Origin: Acidobacteriota bacterium
GTDB taxonomy: Bacteria > Acidobacteriota > Thermoanaerobaculia > Thermoanaerobaculales > Sulfomarinibacteraceae
Direction of reading: 5' to 3'
Length of the DNA stretch: 58,336 bases
Assembly (NCBI GenBank): GCA_013152925.1
Contig: JAADFK010000224.1
Span: 1-58,336 of the forward strand
Within the stretch, counting starts at the first letter, position 1. Every line of letters begins with the position of its first letter. The position numbers were made by a program, and so were the translations under genes. The notes beneath the pieces are model-generated. The model saw nothing but the letters and a program-made list of their open reading frames with translations, did no database searches and was not told the origin of the DNA. Shown here piece after piece: positions 35,986 to 37,892 of this stretch.

Positions 35986-36561
35986 ATGGTGGAGACGTCG
36001 ACGCCGCTGGCTGGCAACCTGCTGATCGCCATGCCGAACCTGGTGGATCCGAACTTCTGGCGCACCGTGGTCCTCCTTGGTGTGCATGGTGAGGACGAGG
36101 GAGCCTTCGGCCTGGTGATCACGCGACCGCTGGAGGTGACCATGGCCGACGTCCTCCGCGAGATCGGCGAGGAGAGCACGGCGGAGGGCTACCCCGAGGT
36201 GCTCGCGGGTGGCCCGGTGGAGCCCACCAACGGCTTTGTGCTCTTTGACCAACCCAAGTGCGTCAACGATCAGGACATGCTGCGAGTGGGCCCGGATATG
36301 GCCATCTCCGGCAACACACGAACCCTGATCCGCCTGGCCCGCGGCATTCCCGGAGTCCGGTACAACCTCGTGCTGGGGTACTCGGGATGGGCGCCGGGCC
36401 AGCTGGAACGGGAGATCGAGGAGAACTCCTGGCTCGTCGCCCCGGCCTCTCACGATCTCGTGTTCGAAACCCCTTACGAGCAGCGCTGGACGGCATCGCT
36501 GCGATCCATCGGCGTCGATCCGGGAACCCTGGTGGACATGGGCTCTGCCTCGCCCAGCTGA
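35986..36561 (+). CDS. YqgE/AlgH (UPF0301) family protein
   Basis: LAGNLLIAMPNLVDPNFWRTVVLLGVHGEDEGAFGLVITRPL...GGPVEPTNGFVL...GYSGWAPGQLEREI. Confidence 0.92.
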   Translation: MVETSTPLAGNLLIAMPNLVDPNFWRTVVLLGVHGEDEGAFGLVITRPLEVTMADVLREIGEESTAEGYPEVLAGGPVEPTNGFVLFDQPKCVNDQDMLRVGPDMAISGNTRTLIRLARGIPGVRYNLVLGYSGWAPGQLEREIEENSWLVAPASHDLVFETPYEQRWTASLRSIGVDPGTLVDMGSASPS

Positions 36562-36638
36562 GCCCCCTCCCCACCGCCCGCCCCCTGATATCGGCCCCGT
36601 CGCCCCCCCGGAGAGACGACACCCGAACGGCCTCCCCA

Positions 36639-36820
36639 GATCCGGCCGGTCCTGGGGGTTTTCGTCGCGAGACCGGGGAGGTGCCCGCCAGTGTGGTGTT
36701 TCGATCAAGGCGCCGCCGAGGCGTGCTGGAGGCACGCCGCAGGCGCCGCCGCCGTGAGAAACGCCGCAATGGCCGGCACATCCCCGGTCGCAGCAGAAAA
36801 CCCCCAGGACCGGCCGGATC
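36639..36820. repeat. 182-bp imperfect palindrome between convergent genes
   Basis: Outer arms GATCCGGCCGGTCCTGGGGGTTTTC (36639-36663) and GAAAACCCCCAGGACCGGCCGGATC (36796-36820) are perfect 25-nt inverted repeats. Inner sequence continues as an inverted repeat to the central hairpin GGCGTGC-tggag-GCACGCC. Confidence 0.92.
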
Positions 36821-37703
36821 AGAAGAACCGGCGCTTGACGAAGATGACGTCGTCGGCCTTGATCGGCGGGTCTTCCTGCTTCCCGTGGCGGATCTTCTTG
36901 AGGTTGTACTTGAAGGTCGTGCTCTTGCCGTCGGCCTTGCGGCGAATCTCCACCTCCTGGGATCCGAACTTCCCCAGGCCGCCCGCCTCGGAAATCGCGG
37001 CCATCAAGGTCTCTCCAGGCGACAGCTCGTACTGGCCGGGGTTGTTCACCTCCCCGGTCACAAAGAAGATGGCCTTCCGCCGCACGGCGATGATGTCCCC
37101 TCCCTTGAGGATGACGTCATCCATCTGACCGTTGACCAGCTCCTTGCGAGGCACGTGGATGACCGACAGGGCACCACCGACCACTCCCTTCTCGTTGCGG
37201 CGCAGCTCGATGATCTGGCCGGCATCATTGGTGAAGCCCCCGGCCTCCGCCAGAAGCTGGGTCAGGGTGGTTACGCCCTTGAGATAGTACGTGCCCGGCT
37301 TCCTCACCGCTCCGAGAATGACCACGGGAAGCGATCCGAACTGTTTGACCACCACCTCGATCTGAACGTCGACGTAGTAGTCCTTCTCGAGACCTTCCGT
37401 CAGCCGCCTGGCGATCTCGGCTTCCGTGAGCCCCGCCACGTGGACCCTGCCGAGAAAGGGGTAGGTGATGGTGCCGTCCTGGTCGACGGAGAAGCTGCCC
37501 GAGATCTCGGCATGGTGAAACGCCGTCACGCCGATGATATCGCCCGGACCCACCCTGTAGCCCACCGGCCTGGACACATCGGGAACCGCCGAGGCACCAG
37601 GAGCCTGTGCTCGCCCGCCAGCTGGTGTTTCCTGGGACCATGCGGCACAGGCCACGAGCAGAACAATCGCAACAACAGCTCGAGAAAGAACACGCCTTTT
37701 CAT
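36819..37703 (-). CDS. polysaccharide biosynthesis/export protein (Wza/SLBB family)
   Basis: GYRVGPGDIIGVTAFHHAEISGSFSVDQDGTITYPFLGRVHVAGLT; SLBB repeats VILGAVRKPGTYYLKG and FFVTGEVNNPGQYELSPGETL. Confidence 0.92.
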   Translation of the reverse strand: MKRRVLSRAVVAIVLLVACAAWSQETPAGGRAQAPGASAVPDVSRPVGYRVGPGDIIGVTAFHHAEISGSFSVDQDGTITYPFLGRVHVAGLTEAEIARRLTEGLEKDYYVDVQIEVVVKQFGSLPVVILGAVRKPGTYYLKGVTTLTQLLAEAGGFTNDAGQIIELRRNEKGVVGGALSVIHVPRKELVNGQMDDVILKGGDIIAVRRKAIFFVTGEVNNPGQYELSPGETLMAAISEAGGLGKFGSQEVEIRRKADGKSTTFKYNLKKIRHGKQEDPPIKADDVIFVKRRFF

Positions 37704-37892
37704 GACGTTTGAGACTAGCATAACTCTCCCGCGATGTGGCCAGCGGAAACCACCGCTCGTTCACTTTGAAAGGGAATCCTCGGAGAGCGACCCCGGCCGC
37801 TCGCCGCAGTGTCTCACGCCGGTACAGCAATCATGTTCTCAGAACAGCAGACACGGTCGCACCGGCCCGAACGAGCACCGCACAGGGCTCGC

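What the first reader, a model, noticed from the sequence alone, without database searches (positions are those of the whole stretch)
36639..36820. 182-bp near-continuous palindrome between convergent algH and a polysaccharide export gene
The outer 25 nt on each side are perfectly complementary. Pairing continues with few interruptions (CCGGGGAGGTGCCCGCCAGTGTGGTGTTTC versus CCGGGGATGTGCCGGCCATTGCGGCGTTTC) to a central GGCGTGC-tggag-GCACGCC hairpin. The right arm overlaps the stop codon of the export gene. This is far longer than an ordinary terminator. Candidates are a MITE-like element, a bidirectional terminator, a structured RNA or a recombination/cruciform site.
Basis: seen in the sequence. 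Interest (0 to 1): 0.65.

Follow-up and report, generated by a model that had tools for sequence, protein, structure and literature searches.

The report
Mobile hairpin element between converging genes
The palindrome is an old copy of a previously undescribed 176-bp hairpin "jumping" element that is spread through Acidobacteriota and some Proteobacteria, often lands in stop codons without harming the gene, and in this genome survives mostly between genes that run towards each other.

Summary
The 182-bp palindrome is real (36639-36820; 25/25 outer bases complementary; RNA fold -149 kcal/mol, z -13). It is one of about 24 copies in this Acidobacteriota MAG. A covariance model built from 58 copies finds it in 29 of 40 related genomes and 27 of 149 genomes of the phylum; copies also occur in Gamma- and Deltaproteobacteria. 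Young copies in relatives show a mobile element: direct 4-bp YTAR target duplications, inverted ends CCCGCATTTCTCACC, no room for a gene, near-identical copies at unrelated sites, and element-free orthologous sites. Stop codons lie exactly in the duplicated YTAR at 29 of 127 facing gene ends, so insertion there spares the gene. IS1634-family elements in relatives share the YTAR target and similar ends, making them the likely mobilisers; none with the identical end was found. The whole hairpin is kept by compensatory changes (392 cells versus 99 in shuffles), with G-T mismatches tolerated more than A-C on one strand. In this genome 15 of 20 sites lie between convergent genes (background about 15%), and arms that differ between copies stay paired within each copy. 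My reading: a MITE family whose surviving copies here act as, or are tolerated as, bidirectional 3'-end hairpins. The terminator role is inferred, not shown.

The parts
36639..36820 (+). Whole element copy (positions TA..TA of other copies), oriented TTTCGTCGCGAG...CGCAGCAGAAA
   Evidence: CM R1 148.7 bits, model positions 1-182; dna self-search finds 24 other matches in the genome
36642..36663 (+). Left terminal inverted repeat, diverged from family consensus CCCGCATTTCTCACC but perfectly paired with the right one
   Evidence: consensus
36796..36817 (+). Right terminal inverted repeat
36638..36641 (+). Position of left YTAR target duplication; here decayed (AGAT)
   Evidence: position inferred from 118 copies
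36818..36821 (+). Position of right YTAR target duplication; here decayed (ATCA), overlaps the stop codon of the export gene (36819-36821)
36660..36799 (+). Core, the part most conserved among this genome's copies, with conserved asymmetric internal loop TTTCGTCGCGAG / CGCAGCAGAAA
   Evidence: invariant columns; G-T/A-C asymmetry
36720..36739 (+). Apical hairpin GGCGTGC-TGGAG-GCACGCC
35986..36561 (+). AlgH-like gene (left convergent neighbour; stop 77 bp from the element)
   Evidence: PF02622 E 6.6e-42
36819..37721 (-). Polysaccharide export (Wza-type) gene, right convergent neighbour
   Evidence: PF02563, PF10531

Best explanation
The palindrome is an old, probably immobile copy of a family of palindromic MITEs (non-autonomous insertion elements, about 176 bp plus a 4-bp YTAR target duplication). 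SHOWN: multi-copy, dispersed, direct YTAR duplications, empty orthologous sites, near-identical young copies at different loci in relatives, no room for a gene. SHOWN: the hairpin is conserved by compensatory change over its whole length. INFERRED: a DDE transposase of the IS1634 family moves it in trans; IS1634 elements in the same order of bacteria share the YTAR target and have similar ends. Because YTAR contains TAG/TAA and is duplicated, insertion into a stop codon leaves the reading frame and its stop intact (stop-codon placement shown, selective reason inferred). INFERRED: in this genome transposition has stopped, and copies were kept, or survived, mainly between convergent genes, where a hairpin stable on both strands can end or protect both transcripts; this would explain why the arms drift in sequence but stay paired.
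For: 25 matches in own genome, about 24 copies at 20 sites with the CM. 4-bp direct duplication: left = right in 34 of 56 copies with TA at both ends, including the non-palindromic TTAG/TTAG 13x and CTAA/CTAA 3x. Identical copies with different flanks in G001. Empty sites for three insertions, one with a single CTAG at the junction. 29 of 127 facing gene 3' ends have the stop codon exactly in the TSD; in L125 both convergent stops do. IS1634 elements with YTAR flanks: CTAG/CTAG twice, TTAG/CTAA once; one has ends CCCGAAGTTCC. Covariation 392 versus 99.1 +/- 8.7 cells, 0/500 shuffles, slid controls at most 108. 15 of 20 own-genome sites convergent versus 13-15% of adjacent gene pairs and 19/94 of copies elsewhere.
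Against: No autonomous element with the identical inverted repeat was found. The window copy itself has no intact TSD. No canonical U-tract follows its full stem, so ordinary intrinsic termination is not indicated. Gene calls around copies are from a simple codon-usage caller, not curated annotation. Survival only in harmless convergent spacers would explain the context bias without any function.
Confidence: 0.85

Rival explanations
1. A mobile structured RNA: the core is a functional RNA (transcribed in the TTTCGTCGCGAG orientation) carried by the transposable ends, for example recognised by a host or transposase protein.
For: Compensatory changes throughout, with pairs running through G-U intermediates; parsimony WC->GT 122 versus WC->AC 53 events, strongest in the inner arm (58 versus 17); the mutational strand bias is weaker, 218 versus 175; invariant unpaired loop nucleotides across phyla.
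Against: No promoter-like site in the 601-bp region scanned and no Rfam family; no bias of copy orientation towards the flanking gene (++ 33, -- 23); single-stranded DNA could give the same asymmetry.
Confidence: 0.3
2. Pairing of the arms is maintained by templated correction of quasi-palindromes during replication (mutation), not by selection; convergent location is survivorship in safe spots.
For: Own-genome arms are the most variable part (column identity 0.44 versus 0.66-0.71) yet 78% Watson-Crick versus 46% when arms are shuffled among copies.
Against: The asymmetric internal loop is never corrected to a perfect palindrome; correction predicts equal G-T and A-C intermediates, and the inner arm does not show that.
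Confidence: 0.3
3. An ordinary bidirectional intrinsic terminator that happens to be long.
For: Convergent gene ends; two weak terminator-like matches inside the arms.
Against: Multi-copy with conserved sequence, TSDs and empty sites in relatives; no U-tract after the full stem.
Confidence: 0.04
4. Assembly chimera or palindromic artefact.
For: None found.
Against: Same length and sequence family in many independently assembled MAGs and one chromosome-level assembly, OX638346.1.
Confidence: 0.01

Closest known systems
Bacterial MITEs with a parent IS (e.g. Correia elements, Nezha, RUP; from memory)
   Same: Short, no gene, terminal inverted repeats, fixed-length target duplication, tens to hundreds of dispersed intergenic copies
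   Different: Hairpin spans the entire 176 bp and covaries across a phylum; target is YTAR, so stop codons are regenerated; asymmetric internal loop is nearly invariant
IS1634-family insertion sequences (NF033559)
   Same: Relatives carry 1.9-2.0 kb copies flanked by YTAR with ends CNYGnRTTY-like, one CCCGAAGTTCC
   Different: No IS1634 copy with the element's own ends CCCGCATTTCTCACC was found; the element has no transposase
IS5 group
   Same: Target-site motif YTAR is documented for IS5 (PMC10359306)
   Different: No DDE_Tnp_1 transposase flanked by the element's ends in these genomes
REP/REPIN elements with RAYT transposases (PMC2817692, PMC3733652)
   Same: Palindromic, dispersed, extragenic
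   Different: REPs are 20-40 bp; here a direct 4-bp duplication exists, which Y1 (HUH) transposition does not make (from memory)

Membership tests
MITE (non-autonomous DDE element) | Terminal inverted repeats | tested here: met
   (helix 1, 91.9% paired)
MITE (non-autonomous DDE element) | Target-site duplication of fixed length | tested here: met
   YTAR, 4 bp, direct; the window copy itself is decayed
MITE (non-autonomous DDE element) | Many dispersed copies and empty sites | tested here: met
MITE (non-autonomous DDE element) | Short, no transposase gene | tested here: met
   Copies are mostly 182 bp between the TAs, too short for a transposase
MITE (non-autonomous DDE element) | Autonomous partner with the same ends | tested here: not met
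   Same-end partner not found in fragmented MAGs; this feature is usual, not obligatory
IS1634-derived MITE | Ends and target shared with IS1634 elements | tested here: inconclusive
   YTAR shared; ends similar (CCCGAAGTTCC, CGTGAATTCCC, CGCGAGTTTAC) but not identical
Intrinsic terminator | GC-rich hairpin followed by U-tract | tested here: not met
   No T-run after the 182-bp stem on either strand
REPIN/REP | No target duplication, GTAG-type foot, RAYT gene | tested here: not met
   Direct YTAR duplication present; RAYT gene not searched
Known Rfam RNA family | Match at gathering threshold | tested here: not met
   Best hit P11, 18.8 bits versus cut-off 70

The most novel reading that the evidence does not exclude
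A transposable element whose body is a conserved strand-specific structured RNA, spread between phyla, that inserts into stop codons without damage and is then domesticated as a shared 3'-end hairpin of convergent genes, its arms free to change as long as they stay paired.
Probability: 0.25. Interest if true: 0.75.

Novelty: new variant of a known kind. Interest (0 to 1): 0.5.

Why it matters
The family is widespread in Acidobacteriota (29 of 40 relatives; 27 of 149 genomes across the phylum), with no description found in Rfam or in the papers searched. It gives a clean case of stop-codon-sparing insertion. Because copies of different age are available, it makes testable whether mobile hairpins become bidirectional transcript ends. 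The arms that drift but stay paired could separate selection on structure from palindrome-correcting mutation.

Tried and rejected
Rfam: nothing. Transposase partners: IS630 (PF13358: one fragment in G000, none with the ends), IS1380 (PF13701), general DDE_Tnp_1 (PF01609), IS701 (PF13546; no hit). A scan for unpaired ends 0.4-4.5 kb apart gave only host genes. An initial 2-bp TA duplication idea (IS630-like) was replaced by the 4-bp YTAR after comparing both flanks. Papers: no match to the end sequences in a relevant paper, no Acidobacteria MITE paper of this kind. Orientation bias of copies relative to neighbouring genes: none clear. The idea that the outer arms are pre-existing terminators into which the core inserted was dropped, because relatives share recognisable arm sequence and the YTAR lies outside the arms.

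Full report
OBSERVATION. The window holds a 182-bp palindrome at 36639-36820 between the AlgH-like gene (35986-36561 +) and a Wza-type export gene (36819-37721 -). The outer 25 bases are fully complementary. Both strands fold into one long hairpin with z-scores of -13 and -11.5.

FAMILY. Searching the own genome with the sequence gives 25 matches. A covariance model made from 58 copies gives 24 copies at 20 sites in the loci examined. The model matches 29 of 40 related genomes, up to 66 hits per genome (a palindrome can be hit on both strands, so hit counts exceed copy counts; only the 67 best candidates per genome were scored). It matches 27 of 149 genomes drawn across the phylum. Named records place the relatives in Acidobacteriota (Thermoanaerobaculales, Holophagae, Sulfomarinibacter). 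Genuine copies also occur in Gammaproteobacteria (RHO1_bin_72, jk18x27bins.56), an uncultured Pseudomonadales chromosome and Deltaproteobacteria (FR_14, OFTM157). Several other pattern hits, such as Sphingomonas and Ensifer, lack the second arm and are chance matches.

MOBILITY. In relatives most full copies measure 182 bp between TA dinucleotides. Comparing both flanks of 118 non-redundant copies shows a direct 4-bp duplication YTAR: left equals right in 34 of the 56 copies with TA on both sides, including TTAG/TTAG 13 times and CTAA/CTAA 3 times. These cannot be continuation of the inverted repeat, which would give TTAG/CTAA. The element proper is therefore about 176 bp, CCCGCATTTCTCACC...GGTGAGAAATGCGGG. 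In G001, copies with identical sequence sit in different surroundings. Orthologous regions without the element were found for three insertions; for the L125 insertion G001 has a single CTAG at the junction. The window copy has lost a recognisable duplication (AGAT / ATCA).

STOP CODONS. YTAR contains TAG or TAA and is duplicated, so an insertion there leaves the upstream gene with its stop. Of 127 gene 3' ends facing a copy, 29 have their stop codon exactly in the duplication. In L125 two convergent genes each end in one copy of TTAA. Which part of this enrichment is target choice and which is survival cannot be told here. In the window copy the export gene's TGA is one base off that position.

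MOBILISER. IS630, IS701, IS1380 and general DDE_Tnp_1 searches gave no transposase flanked by these ends. Relatives do carry IS1634-family elements (NF033559) of 1.93-2.0 kb with YTAR on both sides: CTAG/CTAG in G008 (ends CGCGAGTTTACTGGA), CTAG/CTAG in G036 (CGTGAATTCCCGGGTTA), TTAG/CTAA in G028 (CCCGAAGTTCC). The element's subfamilies start CCCGCATTTCTC, CCCGAAGTATTC or CCCGGATTATTC. Shared target and similar ends make IS1634 the likely class of mobiliser, but no autonomous copy with the same end was seen. IS5 also uses YTAR (PMC10359306).

STRUCTURE. On the 58-sequence alignment the hairpin shows 392 cells with changes on both sides versus 99 in shuffles (0 of 500 reach it), and at most 108 when partners are slid. 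Using a strand-symmetric structure, G-T exceeds A-C (466:160 and 220:85 in the two main groups). By parsimony, Watson-Crick pairs changed to G-T 122 times and to A-C 53 times, most unequal in the inner arm (58:17); in the outer repeat 34:18. General strand bias of transitions at paired sites is smaller (218:175). This points to a constraint on one strand as RNA or single-stranded DNA; it is suggestive, not proof, and part of it reflects shared ancestry.

THIS GENOME. Own-genome copies are old. Their outer repeats are the most variable part (column identity 0.44 versus 0.66-0.71 for the rest), yet 78% of the pairs are Watson-Crick against 46% when arms are shuffled between copies. In the other main group the outer repeat is the most conserved part (0.74), as expected of a repeat still used for transposition. 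Of 20 sites 15 lie between convergent genes (P about 3e-9 at a 15% background), against 19 of 94 in other genomes (with the first own-genome count of 13 of 19, Fisher P 7e-5). Three copies abut tRNA 3' ends. I infer that mobility has ceased here and that hairpins remain where they serve, or at least do not harm, the 3' ends of two genes. No U-tract follows the full stem of the window copy, so a classical intrinsic terminator is not indicated; transcript-end protection or termination by other means is possible and untested.

VERDICT. A previously undescribed (in the sources searched) MITE family, best filed as a probable IS1634-mobilised MITE with an unusually conserved full-length hairpin. Mobility and covariation are shown; the mobiliser, the RNA nature and the 3'-end role are inferred.

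Noticed in passing
L053, L061 (G003), around 1490-1590: A shorter palindromic element of about 86 bp with the same ends (CTAGCCCGCGTTTCTCACC), present at least seven times in G003 with ends 66-68 bp apart: a second, smaller MITE type.
   Followed up: partly
L122, L141, L179 (RHO1_bin_72); G042 C1, C130, C398: Length variants of about 225-285 bp with the same ends, suggesting internal insertions or a longer subfamily.
   Followed up: no
L019 / L280:2356-2543 (own genome C196): A copy that looks nested in or recombined with another copy; its second half has new, long perfect arms (CAGCCCGACGGATGGGGTGCG...).
   Followed up: no
L026/L043 (G013 C24), L278, L282, L276: Copies often lie in pairs 150-450 bp apart, as if the elements attract further insertions or are locally duplicated.
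   Followed up: no
right end of many copies, GGTGAGAAATGCGGGCTA: The end carries an ATG 10 bases from its edge; the simple gene caller often started downstream genes there (12-13 cases), so the element might supply start codons, or this is a calling artefact.
   Followed up: no
L207 (G018), L305 (G008): IS1634 elements with ends CTAG-CGCGAGTTTACTG in two genera of the family, with a CTAG duplication seen on both sides in L305.
   Followed up: partly
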